Below the pieces are notes generated by a model that saw nothing but the letters and a program-made list of their open reading frames with translations, searched no databases and was not told the DNA's origin. DNA of 21,404 bases from Chromera velia. Its lineage: Eukaryota > Sar > Chromeraceae. The translations under genes were made by a program, and so were the position numbers. This document shows positions 1 through 20,314 of the stretch, one piece after another. Every line of letters begins with the position of its first letter. Position 1 is the stretch's first letter. Location of the stretch: the NCBI GenBank assembly GCA_018398765.1, contig JAHBMJ010001697.1:1-21404 (forward strand), in the 5' to 3' direction.

Positions 1-209
1 AGAGGGGGAGGGAGAGGGAGGGAGAGGTAGACACAGATATAGGTATGCTGAGGCTTGGACAAGAGAGGTTCCTTTCTGACAGTTCAGACCTCTACTTAGC
101 AGCGGTAGAGAACAGCACCACAACACAGAAACAACACTGTCAAACAGGGTGGACTGCAATAAAAAGAAAGGAGAGCAGGGGTGTAAAAGTAGAGAAAAGT
201 ATGTGATCT
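1..209. other. Purine-rich flank, no gene
   Basis: The first 30 bases are almost only A and G, in GGGAGGGAGA-like runs, and the rest is mixed sequence. I see no coding potential that looks real and no RNA gene. The purine strand asymmetry resembles the pyrimidine-rich block near 3 kb but on the other strand. Confidence 0.5.
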
Positions 210-459
210 GGGTAAAAATGCAGGGGGGTCTGAGGGGGGGCGCATTTTTACCGACAACAGCCCCTTCTCGGTAAAAATGCAGGAGGCTGGGAGGGGTGGT
301 GTATACAAAGCAGCAGAGAAAAGGACAGAGAATAACTTTTTGACACACATTAGACACAGAAAAATTTCAAAGTGGGAGTAGAGGGGGTGCATTTTTACCG
401 AGCAGGGACCGTTTTCAGTAAAAATGTGCCCCCCCCCAGATCCACCTGCATTTTTACCC
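210..459. mobile_element. Foldback (MITE-like) element of alternating inverted repeats
   Basis: The segment is bounded by an imperfect inverted repeat of about 23 bases: 210-232 (begins GGGTAAAAATGCAGG) matches the reverse complement of 437-459 with a few mismatches. Inside, the core GCATTTTTACC recurs in alternating orientation at about 242, 268-280 (reverse), 389, 416-426 (reverse, degenerate) and 448. The pair 242-254 and 268-280 forms a perfect 13-bp stem with a 13-base loop. There is no coding capacity. A non-autonomous foldback or MITE-type element fits best. I could not identify a target-site duplication, so an insertion history is inferred and not shown. Confidence 0.5.
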
Positions 460-482
460 ACGACTGACTAAGATCAAGGAAT

Positions 483-665
483 TCAACCAAGACTCACTGA
501 AGCAAGACTGACCATCGTTGGACTTCTGCTCGAGGCTCCTACGATTGTCCAAGTACTTGAAGCATAATTGAAGACGTACCTGCATGCAACATCACATGCA
601 AGTATCTGCATGAGAATCAGATCGACCAAAGAGAGATCCCACATCATGGGTCTCCTGGACAGACT
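483..665 (-). pseudogene. Degraded copia-type RT/RNase H junction fragment
   Basis: Read on the minus strand, two adjacent frames give weak matches to the conserved stretch where copia RT passes into RNase H. One frame (about 660-590) reads ETHDVGSLFGRSDSHAD, resembling the usual stretch that ends in a G-x-SD-x-D motif. The next frame (about 592-490) reads CDVACRYVFNYASS followed by SSRSPTMVSLASVS, resembling the TSGYVF / W-S-S-K-Q-P-T-V-L-S region. A frame change and stop codons lie between and after them. The fragment belongs to a different, older copy than the large copia element downstream. The similarity is by eye only and could be chance in a low-information stretch. Confidence 0.38.
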
Positions 666-799
666 AAGGAGGCAAGGAACGGAACACAAAGTGCATGAGA
701 AGTGAACACAGAAACTCTGAATGCCTGCCAAGTTAGCCTGTCTCTATGATAATTTCGAAAATTCTACCAGGACGGGGCTGATCTGGGTCAAGATATGGA

Positions 800-1165
800 C
801 AGACCCATTTTTACCGAGATCGGCCCTTCCTCGGTAAAAATTTCAAAATCGTCACACAGACCATATAAGAAAACAGGCTTCCAGCAATTCATAACTTGCT
901 TCTTTGGAACCCCAAAGCTCGATTCTTGCTTCCTTAGACGACCCAGGGGACGCTGTGTCGGTATGTGTCAGTCTGTCATGGGTTTGTCCATTTTTACCAA
1001 GATCGGCCCTTCCTCGGTAAAAATTTCGAAATCGTCACACAGACCGTATAAGAAAACAGGCTTCCAGCAATTCATACCTTGCTTCTTTGGAACCCCAAAG
1101 CTCGCTTCTTGCTTCCTTAGACGACCCAGGGGACGCTGTGTTGGCATGTGTCGGCCTGTCATGCA
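800..1165. repeat. 183-bp tandem duplication carrying hairpins
   Basis: Two copies of a 183-base unit lie head to tail, about 800-982 and 983-1165, with roughly a dozen differences. Each starts with a foldback: in copy 1, ATTTTTACCGAG (807-818) pairs perfectly with 830-841 around an 11-base loop; in copy 2 the stem 990-1001/1013-1024 has one mismatch. The hairpin core is the same ATTTTTACC as in the element at 210-459. The unit length is a multiple of three, so a 139-codon plus-strand frame (795-1214) runs through both copies. I regard that frame as accidental, because its protein is just the translated repeat and resembles nothing known to me. Confidence 0.85.
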
Positions 1166-4260: not shown

Positions 4261-4875
4261 TCAAATTGGTTTGGTCTGCCAGTCGGCTCGGTTCAACTCA
4301 CGAGGTGTCCACACGACGTCCCTCAGCATGTCCACCCCCATCCTTCTCATCCCCTGAATCATATAGTCGAGCTCTTTCTGCAGCTCTGGCTTGGCTGTGC
4401 ACTTGCCGGACCGCAGGCTGTCATAGACACCTTTCGAGTCCAGATAGAAACGGACCCTTGGGAATTTGCCCATCAATTCGTCTATGAGGTAGCATGGTCG
4501 CCACGCTTCCCTCACTGTCTGTCTGAGGGCTTCCATCTCTGCTGAGTACAGGTGGTCATGGAGTTTTGTTGACCTTGCTGTCTTGAACACCACTAGGTTC
4601 CATTTGTTCCCCTTCTCATGGCTCCACGTTTCATCCCCCCAAAACCCTACAGTCCTCTTCCTGACCTCTTTCGTCTTCGGCTTCCTAGAGGCATCCGAAT
4701 AGAAATGGACTGCTCTACCTTCTGGGAGGAGAGGGCGGATTTCGATTCTCTCCTTCTCCTGCTGCATTCTAGAGATGACGAGGCCTGCGTTTCGCAGGTG
4801 TCTGCGTGTGGGGGTGCGGGTAGATCGCTGCAATTCATCATAAAAGACTCTGCGCTTCCAAAAGAACGACGCAGC
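4261..4875 (-). pseudogene. copia RNase H domain (C-terminal Pol)
   Basis: This is the C-terminal Pol segment, in the same frame as the RT segment upstream and separated from it by one TGA (4876-4878). RNase H removes the RNA strand of the replication hybrid. The visible active-site residues match the copia type: D in HFYSDASRK (about 4680-4700), E in YSAEMEAL, D in FYLDSKGVYDSL, and the terminal D in NRADWQTKPI. The domain ends with TKPI and a TGA at 4261-4263, the usual place for a copia polyprotein to stop. Within this segment the frame is open and has no obvious lesion. It could only be expressed by readthrough of the upstream stop. Confidence 0.85.
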
Positions 4876-5948
4876 TCACCTTAGAATTCCACATGCTGCC
4901 CCATACTCTTCCGTCAGGCTGGTGTCTCTTTCTCCCTCTTTCGGCGGTTCTATCATTGATTCGTCCACAGTCACCCTTCTCCCCCCTGCTTCTATGTCTT
5001 TCAGATATGTCTTCTTGGAGAGATACAGCTTTCCCCCTTCCCTCTCCATGTTGATGCCTGCGAATCGGTTGCTTCCTCCTTCCCCCAACTCTCCTATGGG
5101 GCCCAGTTTTATGTTTTTCCCTAGTTGGGTGAGGGTGGTCAGCATCTTCGCCCCTGCTCCTTGAATGTCGTCTACGTAATGCACTAGGACTTCTGACGCT
5201 GCCCTCTTCTTGCATGGGACCCCATTTTTTATTCCGTCATGACCAGCTCCCTCTCTTCTTACCAGTACTGCCTCCTCCACCAATGTGTACTCACTGTCTT
5301 TTTGCAGCTCGAACTGCAGAGAGAACACAAACAGATTTCCTGCATGCCTCCTTTCATAGTGCGCCTTCTCTAAGCAGTGGATTGCCTCCGGAATATTGCG
5401 CCCGGAATGAGCACAGCCGCTTTTCTTCTGAGCCCCAACCACTGGTCGTCGTCATACTTCTCGGGAAACGGATTCTCTACGGGAAGTTCAGGGAGGCTGA
5501 CAGGGATTCGGACACCCAAGACCCCGAGACTGTGTTTGTGTCTATCTTCGATCTGCTGGAATGCTTTGACAACATCGACGGAGTAGATCACTTTCCCTAT
5601 TGTGATCATGTAGGGGAGACCAGTCAGGAGAGACTGCTGAGCAAGAACCCCCGCATATGTGTCGTACACCCGTGGGTCTGCCCCTCCTTTGATCACCATT
5701 CTGTCTTTCTCTTTCTCTTCACCCCCCGGTTTCTTCTTCACTCCTGCATACTCCCCCATGTTGGTGACAGCCACCACTTCCTGCCTCGTCACTCTCTCAC
5801 CAAACACCCCGTTCTCCAACAGTCCACAAAATTCATCCAACCTTGACTTCTTGAACCTGCCTGACTCGATCTCCCCCCGGGTGGCAGGTCTGAGAGACGT
5901 ACCACTTTTGAACATCATGGCATTGTTCTGCGGGGCTCTTTCTGTTTA
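4876..5948 (-). pseudogene. copia reverse transcriptase domain, frameshifted
   Basis: Two open frames make up the domain: 5370-5948 (N-terminal part) and 4876-5442 (C-terminal part). They overlap and differ by a frame change somewhere in 5370-5442. Motif A is visible as YSVDVVKAFQQIE (about 5560-5585) and the catalytic YVDD box as VHYVDDIQGAG (YVDD at 5167-5178). The segment opens after a TAA at 5946-5948 in the same frame as the linker and integrase upstream. The N-terminal fragment ends at a TAG (5370-5372), and the C-terminal one at a TGA (4876-4878). The catalytic aspartates are intact, but the frame change makes a full RT impossible from this copy. Confidence 0.87.
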
Positions 5949-6884
5949 CTCTCTCTCCTTCTCCTTCTCTTTTCTCCCCGCTATGCCCCTTATCGTCACC
6001 CCTTGTACGATAGAGGGCGCTCTCTTCCCTTCTAACTGCTGCTGTCTGCCCATTACCTGGGGTGCCTCTCCTCTCTCCCATTTCTCTCTCTCCCCTGTGT
6101 CTGACGCACTCGCACCCCCCGAGGGGCATCTGCCTGTTTCGTCAGTTTGGAGGGCTCTTGGCCCATCGCTTTTGACTCTTCCTTCCACTCGACTCGCTCC
6201 GGGGGGACTTGGGGCTGAAGCTTTTGCCTGCACATGTCCTGTGGATTTTGCCGCTTGCATGGACCGTGTGCCTAATGCCTGGCTGGATGCAGATGCACCT
6301 GTCTGGCCTCTCTCCTGGTTGCTTCCATTTCCTCCTCTGTCTCTTTCCTCTCCTCCACGCTCATCATTCTTTCCCATTGCTTTGTGAGACTCTCCTTCAT
6401 TTGACTTGTCGGCCTCTCTCTCTTTTCATGATCCTGTTGCTAGGTCTTGCTGACTGGTAAGAAGCACAGAGAGTCGCAGCACAGGAGAAGAAATCGCTTG
6501 TTTCGAGAGACTGATTGACTCTTCATTTCTTCCTAAGAACATAACATTTTTTCCTTTTCATTCTCTGCCTGTTGCCTGGCTTGCCTCCTTTTCTTTCTCT
6601 TGTTTATGACTCACTGACTCACTTCGTTCACAAGGAGGTGACAACATCTGTCTCTGCAGACTGACCGATTCAGAGCTTCTTTCCACTCTGACACTTTGCT
6701 GACTGGCTGATGATCGGATCGCCGCAGCAGCCCTCTGCTAAGGAAGCGGACTCGGTGGTGGTGTGAGTCCTTGCGCATGCCCGCCTTGTGCTGCTGCTAC
6801 CGCTTGCAGCTGCACTCCTGGTGCTGCTACGGCCGCAGGTGGCTGTTGCGCATGCGCACTCCCTCTCTTCGCATTTGCTACCTA
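5949..6884 (-). pseudogene. Low-complexity linker between copia integrase and RT
   Basis: About 310 codons join integrase and RT in a single shared frame. They are interrupted by TAG at 6882-6884, TAG at 6738-6740, TGA at 6558-6560 and TGA at 6426-6428. The translation is rich in E, K, R, Q, S and A, with stretches such as EREKWERGEAP and KEKEKERE, and has no recognisable domain. A variable hydrophilic linker at this place is normal for copia Pol, although this one is long. The opposite strand has a 242-codon open frame (5659-6387) that I take to be a shadow. Confidence 0.7.
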
Positions 6885-8048
6885 CAACAGGAGTAAGAAG
6901 TCGTCATCGCTCGAGTCACTGGAGTTTTTGTCTTCTCCCTTCTCCATTTTTCTCTTCTCTTCTTTCAACTGCTCGGCATTCTCTTTTCCCTCTCTTTCTT
7001 GTGCTTCTGGGCTCACCCACACTCCTTCCTCTGCCTGCGGCTCAAGGCCTGTGTCTGTGACTCCTGCAAGCAGAAGTTGGGTGGCCTCATCTACCCCCTC
7101 ATAGCCCCACGTGGCTAGAGTGCCCTTGCGAGACTGATGGACGTCTACAGGGTGGACTATCTGGACTGTGAAGTCGTTCGGACCTTCACCCCAGATCTTC
7201 AACACTCTCACTGCATGCGGAGAAGGTCGAGAGATGTACCACCCCCTTTTACCTGGCAGCTCTTCTGTCTTCTTGGCTGTTTTTGCTCTGTGAGGGGTGA
7301 AAATTACCTTGTCCCCACACATGAATTTAAGGGGCGGGTGCTGACCATTCTTCTTGTAGTATGGGGAGGTGCCAAGCTCGTTCATGTGTAGAGCCATGTA
7401 GGTCTCGGCTAGTCCTTCCCACAAGTGAGAAAGCACAGCAAGGGGCCACCCTTTCTCCTTCATTATGGTCCTGGCCAGTTGTTTGATCATCTTTACTGCT
7501 GTTTCTGCGGGTCCTTGAGATGGGGAATGATACTTCGCACTCTTGTTGAAGTGGGTGTAGGGTATGGTCGCCTTTATCTTTGCCGACCTGAGGACATTCT
7601 CATTGTCAAACCTCATTGTGACGATCTGTCTGTGGGGTTTGGGGAGCAGGAGTCTGTTCTGTGCATTGAAACAGACACAGTGATCCATCACGTCACTCTT
7701 TGCATTGAGCCCCATCACATCAATCTCCCTGCTGTGCATTTCGACAATCACTGAGAATGGGTACCCAACGAGCTACCCAATGTCATAATACACCAGCTGC
7801 CCGTACTCTTTCGCTTCCTTCTCTCTTCTCCCAGGCACTGCATGTGGTGTTCTGTTGACTGCATTTCTGTCTTCACACAGCTCACACTCCCTCCACACCT
7901 TCTTCCTCACCTCCTCCTTCATGCTTACCTGCCTTTCTCTGAGGGTAGCAACCAGTCGAGAGAGATCACAGTGTCCAAACCGTGCATGCCACGCCTTCAG
8001 CTCGGTGGGATCGGTGAGTAGACGGTAGTTGGTATCTGCACCTGCCTA
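6882..8048 (-). pseudogene. copia integrase (zinc finger plus catalytic core)
   Basis: The integrase inserts the cDNA copy into host DNA. Starting after a TAG at 8046-8048, the frame gives a GAG-pre-integrase/HHCC zinc-binding segment: WHARFGH (about 7968-7991) and ECELCE (CxxC at 7876-7887). The DDE core follows: first D in YYDIG (7782-7784), second D in MRFDNENV (7605-7607), and E in GPAETAV (7503-7505). The spacing is 59 residues between the aspartates and D-X33-E, slightly shorter than the usual X35. A TAG (7773-7775) sits just after the first catalytic D, where the family usually continues. The C-terminal part (PHRAKTAKKTEELPGKRGWY) and an acidic tail SDSSDDD run to a TAG at 6882-6884. 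All three catalytic residues remain. Confidence 0.87.
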
Positions 8049-8678
8049 CTTCTGCTTCCTTCGGGTGAAGACCTTTTTGATGAAGGCATGTGTTTCTACT
8101 GTGGGTGCTGCAAGCAGAAGAGGAGACAATAGCGGACACATGACAAAAAAAGGGAGGTTTGATCTTCCGTCACCAAACGGCTGAGTGATCCTCAGTCTTC
8201 TCCCCTCTCCATCTGCATCTGTCACTGTCACATAATTCTTTCCACTGAGAGGGCCTGGGAGGCCATCATCAAGAACCAGGCCTTTCCCGCAAAGTAGATG
8301 TTTCATTCTCTCCCCGGGCTTGGTGAGATAGCAGATCACATCAACTTCACCCAACGCCCCCGTGATTTCGTCCACACCCCTAATTCGCACCACTCTGTAA
8401 GACCCGATTTGAATCCCTTCTGCTCTCTCATCACTCACCCCCATGGTGAGCTCAATTGGTTTTTCCTACACAATCCTCCTCGGCTCGATCCTGTCCCTGC
8501 ACAGAATCGTGTTGCTAGCACAGGAGTCTGTGTATATGTGGTCATCATACTGGGACTAGTTCTTCTGTGTCTTCATCTGGTTTGGCTGGATCACAGTGGG
8601 GTGGCTGCGGAACGTTATTTTCGCCTCCGGAGGCTCAAACTACTGCTGTTGAAGGGGCCCAGGTGTGGTCTTCTCCTG
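8049..8678 (-). pseudogene. copia aspartic protease region with altered active site
   Basis: The frame continues from Gag through the protease without a shift but with TAG stops at 8640-8642, 8556-8558 and 8466-8468. The retropepsin active site is visible as YTDSCASNTIL (DSCAS at 8514-8528), where copia proteases normally have D-S-G-A-S. A G to C change (GGT to TGT) has replaced the conserved glycine. Downstream, ATG at 8442-8444 opens a 132-codon stretch reading into LDDGLPGPLSGKNYVTVTDADGEGRRL. A protease with this substitution is unlikely to be active. The protease would normally cut the Gag-Pol polyprotein. Confidence 0.75.
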
Positions 8679-8719
8679 TTACTGCTGTTGAAGGGGCCCA
8701 GATGTGATCTTCTCCTTGT
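8641..8719 (-). repeat. 39-bp in-frame tandem duplication near the Gag/protease border
   Basis: The plus-strand segment beginning ACTGCTGTTGAAGGGGCCCA occurs at 8642-8680 and again from 8681, a period of 39 bases (13 codons) with three or four differences. Both copies translate to EK-x-T/I-x-GPLQQQ followed by a stop: TAA at 8679-8681 in the first-read copy and TAG at 8640-8642 in the second. Confidence 0.85.
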
Positions 8720-10171
8720 CTTCTGTGTCTTCGTCTTCGGCAGTGAGTCTTAGTTGCTGCTGTGAGTGAGAGGGAATCGGAGGGAGGAGCTGTATGAACC
8801 AGGCCTCCAGGAATGGATCTGACTTCGCGTTTGCATCATCATCAGACTCTTCGAACAATGAAGACAATCCACCACGCGCCTTTCCTCCCGATCTCCCACT
8901 GATTCCAGAAGGCAGGACGGGCTTCAACACCATGTTGGCTTGAGGCTGGGGTTGATTCTGGAGGAGGCTCTCTGGCTGCTGTGCAGACGGTTGGTCATTC
9001 GGGGCACAAGAGAGGCATAGAGGCAGTTGCCTCTCATTCTTGCAGTAGCGGGCGTAGTGTCCTCTCATTCTGCACTTGGGGCACGTGTTGTCTGCTGTCC
9101 AACACTTGTGCGGCGGGTGCGATCGATAATACCCGCAGTCTTGGCACCCACCGAGTGCAGGCGGAGCATTCCTGGGTCTCAGATATTGCTGCGGTGGCTG
9201 TTGAGGGTATTGCTGCTGTTGCATCCACTGCTGCTGTTGGTTGAATTGTTGTTGCGGTTCCTGCCTCTGACGGGGCCAGGATTGTTGTCTCATGGCAGCA
9301 TTGGAGCCTCCATACCCTCTTCTTTGTCTCAGAGAGTCTGGGGAAGCCTAGGAGGCACACCCGCTTACCCTGTGTAGAGGGCTTGCATTTGATTCTACAT
9401 TTCATCCCTCAGCGCCTGTTGCCAAATGAGGAGACCCAGAGGGCTCTGCTGCTGTTGCTGTGTGGTTGTTATGAGGTTTGCCTTCAACTGTTCTGATCTC
9501 TCTCTCTACTCTCTCTCGGCCTCTGACTCCCAACTCAGAAAACACCCCTCGCCGTGCTTATTGATCTCATCGCGGATAGCCTTAATCAGGGGCTGGAACT
9601 TATTGTAATCCACCTTGAGTCTAGTCCTGAGTGAGGACACCAGCTTCTGGGGAAGTCTATCCTGCGTATAACGCGCCGCATCCTCATCTGCTACTGTAAG
9701 GCCGCACATGTCCGCCAGATCTAGAAGGTTCTCCATGGTAGTAATCAATTTCTTAGGCTTCGCAATGAAGAGAGCCTTGCCAGAGTATTGGCCGACTACC
9801 TGGAGGGCTCTAGTTACCTTCTTCTTCTGCATCTGAATAGGTACGCTCCAGTTGGACCTCACCGCTTCCCATACCTGCTTCAAGTATTCTTTGGAATCGT
9901 TCTGGCTGTTGGCATCTTGAATCTCCTCCGCGTACCACTTATTCACAACTCCACCTACTGCCTGTTTTTCATCCGGGGCAGACTTCAACGCACTCAAGAT
10001 CTGGTCGATTTCCCAGAGTCTCTTGCTGTCATTGTCTGCTATGGCTTGGTAGGCTACCGAACCATCCCGCTTGACAAAGCATCTCCTCTGGTAGCGCTCG
10101 AACATCCACTCATCCGTGAGGGGAGGGAACAGAGACTTCTTCTCTTCTCCACCCGTCTCTCTGTCATCCAT
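8679..10171 (-). pseudogene. copia Gag with zinc knuckles, broken into two frames
   Basis: Gag is the particle protein that packages the element's RNA. The start is taken at ATG 10169-10171 (MDDRETGGEEKK), the first Met after the leader. The helical N-terminal part runs 221 codons to a TAG at 9506-9508, then continues in frame through a Q-rich stretch to a TAG (9395-9397) and a TAA (9365-9367). A frame change at about 9350-9390 leads into the second part (9293-8679), which is Q-rich and carries CPKCRMRGHYARYC, a perfect C-x2-C-x4-H-x4-C zinc knuckle. It is preceded by a looser CQDCGYYRSHPPHKC. No function remains possible as one protein without readthrough and a frame change. Confidence 0.85.
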
Positions 10172-10715: not shown

Positions 10716-11310
10716 GTCCACCATTCCCACTCCTGGTACTCCTGAATGTTTCTTTCCGATCCAGGTCTCTTTCATTTATTTTTCTGCATGCATGTGAAGA
10801 ATTACTTTTTGAGCTTAATTACACGTTTTGCATTTTGCTCTCAGTCGCTCGCATTCGCGCACGGTCACGCACTTCCTGACCGGGTCTGACTTTACTGTGC
10901 GCGGCGGCGGGATATTCCAAGATCGGCGCCGCAAGGGCCGAACTTCGGACAGCGCGTCCCCCGCGGCCGCGGCCCCCCAAAGTATTAATATATTCATATA
11001 GCTATACGGGGCCGGAGCCCTGCATGCGCACCTGCATGGCGCCATTGACGCACGCCTGGGGCGGCCCTGAGAGGCTTTCTCACCGTCAACCGGTGAGCCG
11101 CGCAAAAGCCTGGGCACGAATACTGCTTGCATGACGTGCAGGGCATTGCAGGGCCTCAAAAGGCCTCCGCAAGGAGGAAAAGCGCACGAGTCACTCACTA
11201 GATTCTGCGCATTTTTTCGTGCCATTGTTGGGTGGAAGGTACGGGTCCTTTCTTCTGTACGCGCACCCGTCAGTCCAGACAACAGCGCGTCAACACTCAT
11301 CATGTGACTC
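10716..11310. promoter_or_regulatory. GC/CpG-rich 5' flank of the HET-like/LRR gene
   Basis: The sequence changes sharply to CpG-rich at about 10850 (many CGCG, GCGC and CGGCCG words), with a short AT island containing TATTAATATATTCATATAG at about 10983-11001. Such a region may hold the promoter of the gene that starts at 11311, but no specific motif proves it. A minus-strand open frame at 10815-11312 shows no known domain and is probably a composition effect. Confidence 0.35.
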
Positions 11311-13434
11311 ATGCCGCAAGGCAGTCAAGAACGCAGCGAGCCTACGGATGACAGCGAGTCCTCCAAAATTCCTGAGGAGTCCAGGGATAGCAGATGGAGA
11401 CAGAGAGTTCTTTGCTCCCTCCGCCAGTCATCTTACTTCGATCTTTGGCGAGCAGTCGAGGAAACTGCTCGGGGAGGGGAGGCGGAAGGTGCGGTGCCCC
11501 ATCCGTTCTCAACCTCATCGTGCGCTTGGTGTGGACGGCTCCTGAGAGAGTGTTTGGACGAGTGGGCGTCGCTCTGTGCAGGGCTGCACTGTCGCAGTGT
11601 ACAGACCGTGATCAGGCTAGGACAAGAGACGGGCAAGGCGACATCTGAGGGGATGCGGGTGGAGGGGGACGTGTGCGATGGTGAAGGAGAGAGGGAGGAA
11701 GACCCAGAAAGTGCGTCAGCTTCCCCTCTACTTGTGACTTTCCGCTGTCTTCATGAGGCCCTTCTCTCGACCCGATGGAGGCTGGGAAGTGACCGCTCGA
11801 TTTTCTACCTCGCGTTCACAGGGGCATTCGCTCTCGTGGAGGTGAGTGACTTGGCGCGTTTCGTTGGCATGGGTGGACAGGCGTGTGCCCGTCAGATTCT
11901 AGAGGAGTTCTTCCCTTCACTCCACGTGAGTCGACAGAAGCTGCTCGAGATTCTCGAGAGCGAACCAGGGGGGGGAGAGGGGTTCGTGCCTGAGGTGTTC
12001 TGCCTGTCTTACGGGTGGCATGCCAAAGGAAACCCCGACCCAACCAGGTCTCTGTGCAGCGCCATTGCTCAGATTCCGGAATTTGATTGCGATCATGCGT
12101 GGGAGGAGGGGGTGAAGCTGAGAAAGGACCGAGGTGACCAGGATTCCACCACCATGTCCTCCGAATTCGACACTTTTTCGTGCTCTCATGCTGCCAGTGG
12201 CCTCACCCCCTTCCTCTCATGGTTGTCCTCTCATTTTCAAACTCGCAGCCTGAGTGCAGAGGATCATGGGCATTTCCTCTTCTGGGACTTTTTGTCCCTT
12301 CATCAGAGACTCCCCCACAGAGACCGCACACCCATCGAAAAAAGAGCTTTCAGGTCAGGCCTCTCACACGTCTCGACTCTGTACGGGAACGAGGCCACAC
12401 GCATGGTGCGCTTTGCACAGATGCCCCCAGCGCACCCATCCGTGACCAACCGCACGCCCTACACCCACCGCGGGTGGACCGTTTTCGAGAGCCGCGTGGC
12501 CGGATTGAAGAGACAGGCTGTAGCGAGGACTGTGCAGATTGGTAGTTTGCCCCCCGACTTCCTCAGCCTTCCGCTCTCCCCTCCGGACTTTACCTCACTC
12601 CTTGACCAGCACCACGACAACGGCGAGGAGGTAATCAGATTTTCCAACGGGTTTGAAGATCGTCCCCGGTTGAAACGCTTCTACGAGAGGTATTTCGCCG
12701 AGGCCTTCGGGAAGAAAAAGACTCTCTCCCTTGCAAGAAGCAGATGCGTGACGGAAAGAGAGGCAACACAGCTCGCCTCCGCCCTTCTGTGGGCAGCCTC
12801 CCATTCTCCAGGTCCTGACGGATGCCTTATCAAGACAGTCGAGCTGGGAGACTGTGAAATGAGCCGCCTCGCTGTGTGCCGTCTCCTCTCTGCCGCTGCT
12901 GAGCTGCCGTCTCTCCGGGTTCTTAGGCTTCCAGAAGAGTGGAAGTCTGTCAAGCCCGAGGACAGAGTTCTGACAGACGAAACACTGCAGGGTCTAGCGT
13001 TGCTGACGAGCCTGACCGAGCTACAAGTGTGCGGACCCGGCGTGGGAGACGGAACGGTGGCGCTTCTGTCTGAGCACCTGAGCTCTCTGCAGAGCCTCTC
13101 GCTGCGTCACGCTTCTGCGTCAGCAAGGAGTCTGATGAGCCTTGTGAGGCTGCGGCGTCTGGAGAGGATAGACCTAGAAGAAACGGAAACCACAGATGAG
13201 CTCCTTAGTGGGCTTGCAAAGAAGCTTCCTCTTCTTACAGACATCGGCGTTGCCAACACAAAAGTAACGGAAAAGGGTCTTGTTTCCCTGTTGGAAGCAG
13301 AAAATCTAGAGTCATTGTGCTTGTGTAGACACAGCCAGGAGGCGGCATTCATTTTTGCAGAGACAACACTGCGTGAACGGTTTCCTGACTTCGAAATTGA
13401 AGACCGAGGCGGCCCATCGCTGCTCTTTTGTTAA
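11311..13434 (+). CDS. HET-like domain protein with C-terminal leucine-rich repeats
   Basis: This is an intact single-exon frame of 707 codons. ATG 11311 is the first Met after an in-frame TGA at 11305-11307, and the frame ends with TAA. Four motifs in residues 230-393 occur in the order known from HET (heterokaryon incompatibility) domains: FCLSYGWH (230-237), FWDFLSLHQ (324-332), LYGNEAT (357-363) and HRGWTVFE (386-393). These compare with LSYCWG, WIDxLCIxQ, IYxxAxxT and RxWTxQE. Residues from about 505 to 690 form cysteine-containing type leucine-rich repeats, with LTSLTELQVCGPGVGDGTVALL and similar units. An acidic stretch lies near residues 120-136. No signal peptide or membrane segment is evident, so a cytosolic protein is likely. 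By analogy it may be a recognition or cell-death-type protein, but this is inference. Two retroelements flank it. Confidence 0.88.
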   Translation: MPQGSQERSEPTDDSESSKIPEESRDSRWRQRVLCSLRQSSYFDLWRAVEETARGGEAEGAVPHPFSTSSCAWCGRLLRECLDEWASLCAGLHCRSVQTVIRLGQETGKATSEGMRVEGDVCDGEGEREEDPESASASPLLVTFRCLHEALLSTRWRLGSDRSIFYLAFTGAFALVEVSDLARFVGMGGQACARQILEEFFPSLHVSRQKLLEILESEPGGGEGFVPEVFCLSYGWHAKGNPDPTRSLCSAIAQIPEFDCDHAWEEGVKLRKDRGDQDSTTMSSEFDTFSCSHAASGLTPFLSWLSSHFQTRSLSAEDHGHFLFWDFLSLHQRLPHRDRTPIEKRAFRSGLSHVSTLYGNEATRMVRFAQMPPAHPSVTNRTPYTHRGWTVFESRVAGLKRQAVARTVQIGSLPPDFLSLPLSPPDFTSLLDQHHDNGEEVIRFSNGFEDRPRLKRFYERYFAEAFGKKKTLSLARSRCVTEREATQLASALLWAASHSPGPDGCLIKTVELGDCEMSRLAVCRLLSAAAELPSLRVLRLPEEWKSVKPEDRVLTDETLQGLALLTSLTELQVCGPGVGDGTVALLSEHLSSLQSLSLRHASASARSLMSLVRLRRLERIDLEETETTDELLSGLAKKLPLLTDIGVANTKVTEKGLVSLLEAENLESLCLCRHSQEAAFIFAETTLRERFPDFEIEDRGGPSLLFC

Positions 13435-14194
13435 AAACTTTATTTGATAAAACTATAGCTCATTGCATGCGGTGACATGACACTATGTCAATGGCTTGTT
13501 CTACAACTTGTTTGTAAAACTATTTACTAGTAGTAGTAGCAGTCGTCGCTAGGCGTGGTTTATACATAAATACATACATTAAATTCTGTTTATCAAGAAT
13601 GTTTGTATGTAATGTATATAAACTAATGTTGTAAACGTGACGTGTTTAAAAGGTCATTTTCAAAACCGAATTCCTGATAATGCCTAACAATGCCTAGGAT
13701 AATGTCAGTTAAGTTTCTAGTCAGGTTTTTATAGTCAGTTTACTAGTTGGTCAGACTGTTACTAAACTAGTCTAGTATATAGGCTAAAAACTAGTGACAA
13801 ACCTAGACTCGGAGTTGAATACTATTTTTTTAAATATGTTCTTTATATACATTGTGTATACATTATATTCTCTAAGTCCAGAATGTATATAAGAATGTAT
13901 GTATGTATAAACTACGCCTAGAGTCGTCGTAGTCCTAGGAGTACAAAGGGGCAGCACACTAAAGATTTTTTGTAACCCAGTTACGTTAGGGGGGGGGGGG
14001 GGCGGGGTTATAATTCATGTAAATTTAATTCATGTCAACCTACAGCCTCCCGGGTAATGAGACATATCTCTCTAGGCTCCCCCCTTATACTACCCCTACC
14101 AAACGGTCCTGGTCCAAACCTTGGTGGTTATAAGGAGCGGGACTACGATTCCTAGGCACCGTAGTAGGCAGTATTTAATAACTCTAGTTACGAT
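13435..14194. other. AT-rich intergenic DNA with CTAG clusters and a G-run
   Basis: No gene is visible. The sequence is AT-rich with repeated ATGTATATAA and CTAGT words; CTAG occurs about eleven times between 13520 and 13950. A run of 14 G followed by C and four G lies at 13989-14007. The 3' untranslated end of the preceding gene probably lies at the start of this stretch, but I cannot fix a polyadenylation site. Confidence 0.5.
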
Positions 14195-14269
14195 AAAGCC
14201 AAAGCGGCAAAGCCAAAGCGGTAAAGCTAAAGCGGTAAAGCCAAAGCGGCAAAGCCAAAGCGGCAAAGC
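14195..14269. repeat. 14-bp minisatellite, five copies plus a partial
   Basis: The unit AAAGCCAAAGCGGC is repeated five times from 14195, with only C/T changes between copies, and ends in a partial AAAGC. Each unit itself contains two AAAGC-type half units. Open frames across it on the minus strand (14096-14371 and 14184-14390) translate to repeated LALPLWLCRFGF-like residues and are artefacts of the repeat. Confidence 0.92.
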
Positions 14270-14570
14270 ATGACGGCAGCCATTGACGGCAGATGCTGCG
14301 AGTCGATCGATCATTTTCAGGCTTTGGCGTGGGTGCGGAGAGAGTAGACAAACAAGCATGTAGCCCCACATGGCCGCAGAAGGCTACCAACTCCCAATAC
14401 TATGAGCTTCTTCTGCAATAGTCGGAGACGGCTTTGCGAACTTCTTGTTCCCCCAGTCTTTTGACGCAATTGAGGCCTCTAGAGTTGCTAGGTGTTCCCT
14501 CACTCCGAAACAAGCAGCGGTGCTCTAAAAGGACAACCACAGAGCAAGCAGAGGAAGCAAAACACCCACA

Positions 14571-16800: not shown

Positions 16801-17280
16801 GAGTCTGGTTCAAGAAGAAGAAAGACAGAGAAGAAAGGAAGGATCGTGTAAAACAGATAATGAGGATGAGGATGATTCGTTTAAAACTGGTTTTGTCTAT
16901 CATAGCACGGTCGTGGGTGCTCCAGTCAGAGTTTTGTATGACATTGGAGCCGATGATATTTTTATCGATAGCAATTTTGCACACTATCGGCAGTTACATA
17001 TTCGCAGGTTTGGTATTCCCCTTAATTGCCGGGTCGCTATGAAGGAGCCGAAGAGACGAGAGGTCAGTGAGTATGCACTTGCTGTGCCCCTTCGAATTCC
17101 AGAGTATCAGGAGACAGTCGGTGCATTGCTTACTGATCTTGATGGCTACGACATCATTCTTGGATGGAAGTGGAGTGATGTTTACCAACCTAAACTCAGT
17201 TACTGGTCTCGTTCCCTTCGCTTCTTCTTCAACGGCAAGGAAATGAATCTTCAGAGAGGTGCATATATAAAAAATAGACC
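16801..17280 (+). pseudogene. gypsy aspartic protease
   Basis: The frame that includes GTG 16913 reads VGAPVRVLYDIGADDIFID. The D-I-G-A at 16940-16951 stands where retropepsins have D-S/T-G-A, so the catalytic aspartate is present but the conserved T has become I, consistent with one C to T change. The expected partner motif appears as GYDIILGWKW (about 17142-17171). The frame is open upstream through an acidic stretch NEDEDDSFKTG. The protease would release Gag and Pol. The T to I change probably impairs activity. Confidence 0.75.
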
Positions 17281-18470
17281 TTGCCCTCCCATTGTGTCGC
17301 ATCTGCAGGCCAAGCGAGCAATCAAGAGGGGTACTGTCTGTCATATCGTGTGTCTGGAGATGACACATCGGCCTGTCTGCGACCTTGAGTGTTCTGCTCA
17401 TGCAACTGAAGTCAGTGAGGGAAAAGGAAGGGGGAGAATGAATGATGGGGGGATTTTAGGTTCTGACTTTCTCTCTTCTCTCCCGTCTGATCATCCTGCT
17501 CGGTCGGCCCCTGACTTGACAATGTCAGATGTGCATAAATTTCTCTCTCGACCAGATGCTGAGGTTTTGCTTGATGTAAAGGAAATTGTGGCTGATCATG
17601 CGACTCTTTTTCCTGATCGGTTGAAGGAATTGCCTACCTCGAGGAGACTTGATTTGGATTTCAAGATTGAACTCAAACCAGGTCACTCTCTTCCCGCCCG
17701 CCCGCCCTATCGTTTGTCGATCGGAGAACTGGATGAATTGAGAAGATAGATAGATGCATACATCGAGCAGGGATTCATCCGGGCCATATGATCCGGCCGT
17801 CTGCATCTCCGTATGTTGCTCCAATCTTGTTTGTCCAGAAGAAGGACGGAACCATGCACATATATTATGACTACACAGGCCTGAACAAAATCACGATCAA
17901 AGATAAATATTCTCTTCCTCACCCTCAGAATTTGATTGATCGACTGGATGGTGCCCGTTACTTCACGACACTTGACCTCTGTCAGTATTACCATCAAATG
18001 CATATGAAGGAGGAAGACATTCCAAAGACTGCTTTCACTACTCGATATGGCTCTTTTGAGTGGTTGGTCGTCTCTTTTTGTTTGACGAATGCACCACCGC
18101 ATGGAATGAGAGTGATTCAATATGTTCTTCGTTCATGTCTCGATCGTTTTGTGTCTGTTTTTCTGGATGACATTCTCATTTACTCACGCACAAGAGAAGA
18201 ACATAAAAAGTATATCCGGACTGTACTCAGATTGCTGGGTGAGGCAAAGCTGTATGCAAAGCTCTCAAAATATTATTTCATGCAGACTGATTTCGTCTTT
18301 CTGGGACTGAAGATTTCGCGAACGGGAGTGAGGCTGGAGAAAAGCAAGACAGAGGAAGTGAGTAAGTGGCCCACTCCAAAGAGCAAGAACGATGTGCTTT
18401 CTTTCCTTAGTTTTACAAACTGGGTGAGACGCTTTGTGCCTCGTTTTAGTGAAAAAGCAGGTCCTCTGTA
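17281..18470 (+). pseudogene. gypsy reverse transcriptase, frameshifted
   Basis: The N-terminal part is in the protease frame: LDLDFKIELKPGHSLPARPP, YRLSIGELDELRR, a TAG at 17747-17749 and IDAYIEQGFIR. A frame change at about 17770-17795 leads to IRPSASPYVAPILFVQKKDG. The finger and palm follow: DYTGLNKITIKDKYSLP, FTTLDLCQYYHQ (motif A aspartate), KTAFTTRYGSFEWLV, LTNAPP, and the catalytic box VFLDDILIYS (FLDD at 18160-18171). The frame change coincides with a near-duplicate ATCCGGGCCATATG followed by ATCCGGCCG, which suggests a 14-base insertion. The catalytic residues are intact. Confidence 0.88.
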
Positions 18471-18930
18471 TGCCGCTGTATGTGCTGCTGAAAGAGAACA
18501 AAGTGTTTAAATGGGGGAAAAAAGAGGAAGAGAGCTTTGAGGCAGTGAAAGAGGCAGTAAGAAATACTGTCGAACTGTATATTCCTGACCCTGCATGTCC
18601 GTTCAAAATTTTTGTGGATGCATGTGAGTCGACAGAGACGCTTGCTGCTGCACTCATGCAGGAAGACCCTGAGACTGGGTGGCTGCGTCCATGCGCTTTC
18701 ACCTCTCGAAAAATGACGCAGGCAGAGTTAGAGTAGCCGATTAGAGACAAAGAATTCCTCTCGGGTGTGTTTGCAGTGAAGACGTGGAGGCCGTACATGA
18801 GTTACACAACAAAGGTATGGTCAGATCATGAGTCTCTTAAGACTTAGTATATGAATCTGTCTGCTGATCGCACCTTGATGTCTTCACGTATGCGTAGGTT
18901 TGTCTTGACTTTCGACGAGGTGGGGATCAC
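18434..18930 (+). pseudogene. gypsy RNase H domain
   Basis: After a second frame change at about 18460-18490, the frame reads LYVLLKENKVFKWGKKEEESFEAVKEA and then FVDACESTETLAAALMQ, with the RNase H aspartate in the usual place. It continues past TAG at 18734-18736 (ELE stop PIRDKEFL) to VKTWRPYM and WSDHESLKT. A second TAG follows at 18845-18847, before YMNLSADRTLMSSRMRRFV. It removes the RNA template after reverse transcription. The frame change lies at CCTCTGTATG followed by CCGCTGTATG, a 10-base near duplicate. Confidence 0.82.
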
Positions 18931-20268
18931 TCCGAGATACGCGTCTGGCGCCCGCAATTGTGTGGCAGATGCGCTGAGCCGTCGTCTTGGACGCCCTCAG
19001 ACGTCGACGCCAGCAGAAGAGAAAGAAAGAAAAGAGGTCTGTCAGTTGTTGTTATTGGATTTAAGAGTGCAGCCAGATAAGGAGTTGCTGGGTAGAATAA
19101 GGAAAGGGTATGATGAAGAGAAATTTTGGACAAAAGTGAAAGAAGTGCTCGAGCATCCTGAGATAGGAGTGCCTCGACACTTGCGGCTGATTGTTCCGTG
19201 TTTTCAGATAGAGGACGGACTACTTTATTTCAACGATAGGTTGGCTATCCCAACAGAGAGACTGCAAAGAAATCTTATTTATGAGCATCATGACACAGCC
19301 GTTGGTGGTCATTTGGGAACAGAAAAGACCTACTTGAAGTTGGCAGGAAACTTCTACTGGCCGCACATGTATGCATCTGTTGTACGGTACGTAAGAAAGT
19401 GTGATGTATGTCAGCGATCAAAGAGGCTGACTGAGAAGCCGTATAGACTGTTGCAACCTCTTTCTATTCCTGAATTTTCTTTCCAATCGATTTTTCTTGA
19501 CTTTGTGTTTGGACTTCCAAGCGTGACGTTCAGGGGGGAATCGGTGGATAGAATTCTCTCTGTGGCTGACCGTTTGTCCTATTTTTTGCTAGCGTTTGTC
19601 CAAAACTCCCTTCTTTGCTGCAATCTCCTCAGAGATCATGATTGAGGGGACAGCAGAAGTCGTGTACGAGCAAGCGGTGTGTGAACACGGTATGCCTTAG
19701 TCAGTGGTCAGTGATCGTAACCCTCGTTTTCTCTCTATATTTTGGAAAGAACTCGCTCGCCTGTGGGGAACGAAACTGATACACCAGAGGACATCCACAG
19801 TCAGATGGCCAGACAGAGAGAGATAACCAGACCATCGAATAAATGTTGCGCTGTTTCATGAATAAGCACCAGACTGACTGGCCGAAGTGGTTGTATTCTT
19901 GCCAGTTTGCATATTGTGATTCTGTTCATCCTGCCACAGGCATGTCTCCTTTTTGTTTCTTATATGGACGTGACTCTATTCGCCTGCCTTCTATCTCTGT
20001 GCGCTCCAAGTCATTCTATCCGCCAGCAGCAGACTTTGTAGACCGCAGAGAGGCAGAAATCATGAGGGCAAAGGAACGACTTGAGCAAGCAGGAGAACAA
20101 GCAGCTCGACAGGTAGATCTATGCAGACAGGAAGTTTTGTTTGCCCCAAGGGACTTTTTGCTTGTACATAATGCATACTTCAAGGGAAGCAAAAAGCCAA
20201 GTAGGAAGCTTGAGCCTGTGTTTTACGGACCCTTTGAGCTAGAAAAGAAAGTGGGAAGCAATGCATTA
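18931..20268 (+). pseudogene. gypsy integrase with GPY/F module, frameshifted
   Basis: The HHCC zinc-binding domain is intact: HHDTAVGGHLGTEKTYLKLA, YWPHMY and KCDVCQRSK (about 19285-19425). The catalytic core is split over three frames: D in IFLDFVFGLP (about 19490-19515), D in SVVSDRNPRF (19713-19715) after a TAG at 19698-19700, and E in SDGQTERDNQ (19816-19818). A TAA at 19840-19842 follows. The C-terminal part, from MLRCFMNKHQTDWPKW to YGPFELEKKVGSNA (ending about 20268), is the GPY/F module. The usual tail after it is replaced by AT-rich sequence. The integrase inserts the cDNA. All three catalytic residues remain, but in different frames. Confidence 0.85.
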
Positions 20269-20314
20269 ACTAACTGTACTGACAATTGAAACTTTTGTAC
20301 TAGAAAGTGACTTT
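20268..20314. repeat. Direct repeat copy 1 (about 47 bp)
   Basis: AACTAACTGTACTGACAATT and the following bases to 20314 recur at 21043-21089 with three mismatches, 775 bases apart. The repeat starts exactly where similarity to gypsy integrase ends, so it may mark the edge of an insertion or a recombination joint. A reverse-complement 14-mer of part of it occurs at about 2833-2846. Confidence 0.8.

What the first reader, a model, noticed from the sequence alone, without database searches (positions are those of the whole stretch)
11311..13434. HET-like domain joined to leucine-rich repeats in an intact 707-codon gene
Four motifs in the order of fungal HET domains (LSYGWH, FWDFLSLHQ, LYGNEAT, RGWTVFE) precede a block of LRRs. 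HET domains are known mainly from fungal allorecognition and cell-death proteins and are thought to be distant relatives of TIR domains. Fusion to LRRs would give an NLR-like layout without an obvious NTPase. If the match holds, this is a candidate self/non-self or damage sensor in a lineage where such systems are little described. The motifs are seen in the sequence; the family call and role are inference.
Basis: partly seen in the sequence, partly recalled or inferred. Interest (0 to 1): 0.72.

Follow-up and report, generated by a model that had tools for sequence, protein, structure and literature searches.

The report
Possible HET-like region before leucine-rich repeats
A eukaryotic gene seems to join a distant relative of a fungal cell-death domain to a row of leucine-rich repeats, which could make a simple one-protein sensor, but the family link rests on two or three short motifs and no structure or relative could confirm it.

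Summary
The ORF is real: 11311-13434 (+), 707 codons; its start is less sure, since the first ~118 codons show little coding signal. The four quoted motifs are present (aa 232, 324, 357, 387). The C-terminal part carries five, perhaps six, leucine-rich repeats (2 of 20,000 shuffles as good; best Pfam LRR E=0.0015, below cut-off). The HET call is suggestive, not established. Pfam HET does not match. The third motif is not supported. AlphaFold2 gave no usable model (pLDDT 37 and 50). No P-loop pattern and no NTPase match, so it is not an NLR. No relative was found in the collections I could search. Best reading: a divergent HET/TIR-like region keeping the W-x3-E glutamate, fused to an LRR sensor without an NTPase; a possible new variant of a known kind, unproven.

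The parts
11311..13434 (+). 707-codon ORF, the whole protein P0001
   Evidence: stop at 11305 upstream; codon-position G+C 61/49/61%
11311..11664 (+). first ~118 codons, weak coding signal; start codon uncertain
   Evidence: G+C by codon position 0.59/0.57/0.62 here, 0.67/0.47/0.63 in codons 119-236
11995..12021 (+). HET block 1 (aa 229-237 VFCLSYGWH; LSYxW motif)
   Evidence: 10.8 bits, best place in the protein; as good in 45 of 3000 shuffles
12022..12273 (+). long spacer (aa 238-321) between blocks 1 and 2, includes GNPDPTRS
   Evidence: 101 residues from the L of LSY to the Q of the second motif (positions) against 52-60 in the 9 fungal HETs measured; one further HET (L027/L067) also has a long spacer
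12274..12306 (+). HET block 2 (aa 322-332 FLFWDFLSLHQ)
   Evidence: 2.7 bits, best place in the protein by 8 bits, but as good in 363 of 3000 shuffles
12379..12399 (+).
   Evidence: block 3 scores -5.7 at aa 346-361 and fits better elsewhere; aligned alone, block 3 landed here in 2 of 3 settings
12463..12501 (+). HET block 4 (aa 385-397 THRGWTVFESRVA; RxWxxxE, Glu393)
   Evidence: 12.2 bits, best place in the protein; as good in 37 of 3000 shuffles
12904..13308 (+). leucine-rich repeats (five units from aa 532 to about 666; a possible sixth at aa ~664 by eye)
   Evidence: 2 of 20,000 shuffles; Pfam LRR families E=0.0015 to 0.47, all below cut-off

Best explanation
The gene encodes a protein with a divergent HET/TIR-like region (about aa 225-410) followed by a C-terminal leucine-rich repeat region (about aa 530-690), with no NTPase between them. 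Shown: the ORF, the repeats, and an above-chance ordered match of three HET blocks. Inferred: that the region has the HET/TIR fold; that Glu393 in the W-x3-E motif is the counterpart of the glutamate shared by HET and TIR; that the LRRs bind a ligand or a guarded protein, and that binding brings HET-like regions together, switching on NAD+ cleavage or recruitment of other HET/TIR proteins and so a defence or cell-death response. It would work like a TIR-LRR or HET-NLR receptor in which ligand binding alone, and not an ATP switch, drives clustering.
For: Ordered block score 20.0, 3 of 20,000 shuffles and 0 of 284 control ORFs; an earlier model gave 27.0, 1 of 5000 shuffles, 0 of 66 ORFs. Blocks 1, 2 and 4 each have their best position in 707 residues at the expected place and in order. 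The HET profile with filters off aligns the two outer motifs only, E=0.013 for the protein, 0.1 and 0.089 for the two pieces. LRR chain 2 of 20,000 shuffles. No P-loop pattern. Literature: HET is a death-inducing domain remotely related to TIR with a functionally relevant glutamate conserved (PMC9815663, passage; PMC4986451, section).
Against: No Pfam match of any family in aa 1-480, none in NCBIfam or PADLOC. Score far below true HETs (29 of 31 at 93-146; the other two at -4.3 and 12.7). Block 3 fails, block 2 alone is not significant. hhalign probability 1%. Both AlphaFold2 models are unusable; the second came out all-helical, which is not a TIR fold, though at pLDDT 50 this says little. No relative found, so conservation of the motifs is untested. 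Gap limits of the block model were set by me knowing the window protein. Function is inferred from families only.
Confidence: 0.45

Rival explanations
1. An ordinary LRR protein (an adaptor or scaffold, say) whose N-terminal region belongs to an undescribed, lineage-specific family; the HET motifs are coincidence picked out by a reader scanning much sequence.
For: No profile match; motif 3 fails and motif 2 alone is not significant; 3 of 20,000 is for one protein, while the finding was chosen after a scan of unknown size; hhalign 1%.
Against: Three blocks place themselves correctly and in order over the whole protein, and no control ORF reaches the score (0 of 284; 0 of 244).
Confidence: 0.37
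2. A divergent TIR domain and not a HET domain, joined to LRRs, as in TIR-type receptors without the NTPase.
For: HET and TIR are remote relatives (PMC4986451); VFCLSY resembles the first TIR strand and W-x3-E the TIR glutamate motif (both recalled, from no call).
Against: No Pfam TIR row; a TIR profile from the first-pass TIR ORFs over 70 residues (at most 32) gives no match in aa 200-430, only a poor one at aa 24-57, E=0.087 for the protein. The Trp after LSY and the Gln of FWDFLSLHQ are HET-type (compare the HET alignment).
Confidence: 0.1
3. The open frame is one exon of a larger gene, so the true architecture (possibly with an NTPase on another exon) is not visible. This can hold together with any of the others.
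For: Coding signal is weak in the first ~118 codons; a stop lies two codons before the ATG. Splice sites were not tested.
Against: The frame stays open to its stop with 15-29 stops in each of the five other frames, and G+C falls from 57% to 34% after it, so the 3' end looks real. Nearby ORFs on both sides are retroelement-like.
Confidence: 0.25

Closest known systems
HET domain (Pfam PF06985), as in Podospora HET-E and HET-B
   Same: LSYxW, D-x5-Q and RxWxxxE motifs in the same order; Glu at W+4
   Different: Below any family cut-off; Cys of the second motif is Ser, Gln before the Glu is Phe; third block not found; long spacer after block 1; LRRs in place of the WD40, ankyrin, TPR or lectin partners described in fungi
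TIR-NB-LRR and other NLR receptors
   Same: Possible signalling domain N-terminal, LRRs C-terminal
   Different: No P-loop pattern and no NTPase match
HET homologues outside fungi (stramenopiles, haptophytes, choanoflagellates, green algae, bryophytes; PMC4986451)
   Same: HET-like region outside the classical fungal set, if the host is not a fungus (host unknown)
Pfam LRR families (LRR_R13L1-DRL21, LRR_14) and FBXL17 LRRs
   Same: Repeats spaced 24-33 residues, LxxLxxLxL; weak matches
   Different: Pfam scores are below cut-off

Membership tests
HET (PF06985) | Match to the Pfam profile above its cut-off | tested here: not met
   No HET row at E up to 10, whole protein and pieces (the tool's filters drop most weak matches); own HET profiles with filters off E=0.14 and 0.013 for this one protein
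HET (PF06985) | Block 1, [AT]LSYxWG | tested here: met
   VFCLSYGWH, best place in the protein, 45 of 3000 shuffles as good; final G replaced by H
HET (PF06985) | Block 2, LWIDAxCINQ | tested here: inconclusive
   FLFWDFLSLHQ is the best place but 363 of 3000 shuffles are as good; C replaced by S
HET (PF06985) | Block 3, ERxxQVxxMxxIYxxA | tested here: not met
   Score -5.7 at the motif, best place at aa 450; 2569 of 3000 shuffles as good as that best
HET (PF06985) | Block 4, RxWxxQE with its Glu | tested here: met
   THRGWTVFESRVA, 12.2 bits, best place, 37 of 3000 shuffles; Q replaced by F, Glu kept
HET (PF06985) | HET/TIR-like fold | tested here: inconclusive
   AlphaFold2 mean pLDDT 37.1 without alignment and 50.0 with a hypothesis-directed alignment
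HET (PF06985) | Causes cell death when expressed | not testable with these tools
   needs an experiment
TIR (PF01582, PF13676) | Profile match | tested here: not met
   No Pfam TIR row; own TIR profile has no match in aa 200-430
NLR / STAND receptors | Central NACHT or NB-ARC NTPase | tested here: not met
   No GxxxxGK[ST], no NTPase family; an NTPase on an unseen exon is not excluded
Leucine-rich repeat proteins | Tandem LxxLxxLxL units of about 20-30 residues | tested here: met
   Five units in chain, 2 of 20,000 shuffles
Leucine-rich repeat proteins | Pfam LRR match above cut-off | tested here: not met
   Best 18.8 bits against 27

The most novel reading that the evidence does not exclude
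A single-chain receptor, in a eukaryote that I suspect is a protist, in which a HET/TIR-type NAD+-using death domain with its glutamate kept is fused straight to a leucine-rich repeat sensor, so that ligand binding alone triggers the response with no NTPase switch; a layout not found in fungal NLRs, where no LRR motifs were seen (PMC4986451 abstract), nor in the papers that my searches showed.
Probability: 0.28. Interest if true: 0.7.

Novelty: new variant of a known kind. Interest (0 to 1): 0.42.

Why it matters
Fungal NLRs carry WD40, ankyrin or TPR sensors and no LRR motifs were found in them (PMC4986451 abstract), while plants and animals use LRRs. A HET-LRR fusion without an NTPase would show that death-type domains and LRRs were combined once more elsewhere among eukaryotes, and would give a compact protein in which the still unknown way that HET acts could be tested. 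As it stands, the family link is not proved.

Tried and rejected
Relatives. Viral contigs by protein (no pattern match); by DNA patterns for HET and window-type motifs (0, 3 and 12 loci; the 15 loci were read, none HET-like); by the fungal HET alignment (30 stretches matched a pattern, none confirmed by tblastn); by two patterns for an algal-type motif that I recalled, S[HY]RW..HPDP (33 and 26 loci; 41 motif places found, none followed by the later motifs). Plasmids and phages by tblastn: 2 and 8 records, E 0.5 to 9, read as chance. PF06985 in prokaryotes: 1 of 6, 1 of 52, 0 of 288 and 0 of 296 genomes, the one being G001 each time; the tool warns that searches do not show absence.

Structure. 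Single-sequence AlphaFold2 failed. Default MAFFT of the domain with whole HETs keeps blocks 1 and 4 in register (block 4 slipped in 2 of 30 settings) but not 2 and 3; HETs cut into pieces did no better at first. I then looked for inputs that put the blocks in register: 1 of 900 (blocks 2-4, block 1 rows absent) and 5 of 700 (a random 700 of the 2592 generated). Alignment A3 is therefore hypothesis-directed and a good model from it would have been weak evidence; the model was poor. I made no fold search, since both models are low-confidence.

Other blanks: HET alignment A2 against solved structures 0 matches; phmmer of the region 0; Rfam 0; DNA tandem repeats at 12700-13500 none. In one search the search with the second HET profile did not run (a wrong option); it was run. 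A first TIR profile from 2 seed sequences gave no hit on the protein.

Rows dropped: 34 unique HET stretches cut to 31 longer than 100 residues; control ORFs under 300, 200 or 120 residues left out. Shorter ORFs have less room for a chance chain than the 707-residue protein, so the shuffles are the fairer control.

Full report
What is there. The ORF at 11311-13434 (+) is as described: ATG to stop, 707 codons. A TGA stands two codons before the ATG, G+C by codon position is 61/49/61%, and 300 base shuffles of the ORF gave open frames of at most 276 codons. In sliding pieces the second-position dip is nearly absent in codons 1-118 (0.59/0.57/0.62), clear in codons 119-295, shallow in codons 237-413 (0.53/0.49/0.60, 0.54/0.52/0.67) and clear again from about codon 355 on. 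So the true start, or an upstream exon, is open. G+C falls from 57% in the ORF to 34% in the next 600 bases. The surroundings hold retroelement material: on the + strand ORFs with protease (E=2.3e-7), reverse transcriptase (E=6.9e-26) and integrase zinc-binding (E=9.2e-21) matches between 16.9 and 19.6 kb, a Ty3/gypsy-type order (my reading); six minus-strand ORFs between 4.3 and 10.2 kb gave no Pfam match at E<=0.01 and look to me like copia-type remnants. I take the window as eukaryotic for that reason. I suspect a chromerid or similar alga from memory alone; no call shows it, and no whole genome is held.

The repeats. The C-terminal part has five LxxLxxLxL units at aa 532, 565, 590, 614 and 639; a chain of five was reached by 2 of 20,000 shuffles of aa 496-707, and aa 1-495 has no chain. 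A sixth unit at about aa 664 fits by eye. Pfam LRR families match weakly (best E=0.0015, 18.8 bits, cut-off 27), as do four LRR chains among solved structures, FBXL17 first (E=0.017 to 0.14). I take the LRR call as sound.

The HET call. Pfam finds no HET and no TIR in the protein or its pieces at E up to 10, and no family at all in aa 1-480; NCBIfam and PADLOC find nothing. To test the motifs I needed real HETs. A degenerate pattern for W-x-D-x-x-C-I-[ND]-Q in genome contigs gave 20 loci, 15 of them from one MAG labelled Deltaproteobacteria CPC1; the other five were read and are not convincing HETs. The whole MAG (G001) has 41 PF06985 matches, the best E=1.2e-35; I take these contigs to be fungal contamination (inference). 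From its loci I built HET models without the window protein's letters, though block limits and gap limits were set by me after I had seen it.

A full-length HET profile with filters off gives E=0.14 (18 seed sequences) or 0.013 (31 sequences) in a search of this one protein; in the second the only two aligned pieces are LSYGW and RGWTVFE. hhalign gives probability 1%, E=0.051, and aligns the LSYGW piece only. Long spacers punish such profiles, so I also scored four ungapped blocks in order with free spacing. First model: 27.0; 1 of 5000 shuffles as good, mean 3.5; best of 66 other ORFs 14.3; the HET ORFs ran from 9.6 to 165.7. Second model, built from alignment columns: 20.0; 3 of 20,000 shuffles as good; best of 284 control ORFs 13.0; best of 56 other window ORFs -7.1; the 31 HET ORFs that made the model score 93.6-145.9 save two (-4.3, 12.7). 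Further controls: best of 51 TIR-bearing ORFs 14.9, best of 193 others 8.2. Block 3 does not: its best place is aa 450 and 2569 of 3000 shuffles do as well. Aligned alone by MAFFT (register read on one fungal row, L023), pieces for blocks 1, 2 and 4 landed on the motifs in 3 of 3 settings and block 3 in 2 of 3; when several kinds were aligned together they were often misplaced.

So the likeness is above chance for one protein (3 of 20,000), rests on two strong motifs and one weak one, and is far from fungal HETs. A TIR profile built from prokaryotic TIR ORFs does not match the region.

Structure. AlphaFold2 on the single sequence: mean pLDDT 37.1. With an alignment of aa 208-425 and fungal HET fragments, placed by a hypothesis-directed choice of inputs: mean pLDDT 50.0, all helices. 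Neither can be used for or against a fold, and I made no fold search.

Relatives. None in viral contigs, phages or plasmids by the searches made. So conservation, the decisive evidence, is missing.

Mechanism. [quoted passage not shown] it is remotely homologous to TIR, with a functionally relevant glutamate conserved (PMC9815663, passage). PMC12881547 (passages) has a table row for HET/TIR proteins with two entries 'not determined', which I read as biochemistry and structure, though it speaks elsewhere of NAD+ hydrolase activity for the HET/TIR module. In the window protein the Glu at W+4 of RGWTVFE (aa 393) is kept; that it is catalytic is inference. I infer an LRR sensor that clusters or unmasks a HET/TIR-like region. 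Without an NTPase (no P-loop pattern; no family) it would work like an NLR but is not one.

Known or new. HET homologues in stramenopiles, haptophytes, choanoflagellates, green algae and bryophytes are in print (PMC4986451, section read), so HET outside fungi is not new. The same paper reports no LRR motifs in fungal NLRs (abstract seen). Literature searches: HET domain with Chromera velia 0 papers; heterokaryon incompatibility, LRR, TIR and protist 4; HET, TIR, dinoflagellate 1; two of heterokaryon incompatibility, HET domain, Symbiodinium 61, 20 listed; Chromera velia with LRR 4; HET, LRR, alga 3; two of TIR domain, Vitrella, Chromera 157, 20 listed; two of HET domain, PF06985, Stramenopiles 17; heterokaryon incompatibility with dinoflagellate 1; five of six immune terms 57, 10 listed. 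None of the listings, nor the passages I saw of PMC4986451, PMC2939053, PMC10197012, PMC9815663, PMC12881547, PMC10890737 and PMC4501334, showed a HET-LRR fusion; the library lacks most subscription papers and preprints. I rate it a possible new variant of a known kind, interest moderate.

Noticed in passing
window 16913-20289 (+): Ty3/gypsy-type retroelement pieces: RVP_2, RVT_1 and Integrase_H2C2 in separate ORFs, and a weak SH3_Tf2-1 match below cut-off in the last; a 50-nt repeat at 20268 and 21043 is 92% alike.
   Followed up: partly
window 4261-10171 (-): Run of minus-strand ORFs that look like copia-type gag-pol remnants to the eye; none of the six tested has a Pfam match at E<=0.01.
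   Followed up: partly
window 209-1163: Two 176-nt direct repeats at 805 and 988, 95% alike, and a 73-nt inverted repeat at 209-281/388-460; a shared CGGTAAAAAT motif recurs among them.
   Followed up: no
window 14191-14283: Array of a 14-nt unit, several copies.
   Followed up: no
L018, L020-L023, L025, L027-L035 and G001: A MAG labelled Deltaproteobacteria bacterium CPC1 carries 41 PF06985 HET matches, probably fungal contigs binned as bacterial.
   Followed up: partly
window 11311-11664: The first ~118 codons show little codon-position signal; the start codon or an intron may be misjudged.
   Followed up: partly
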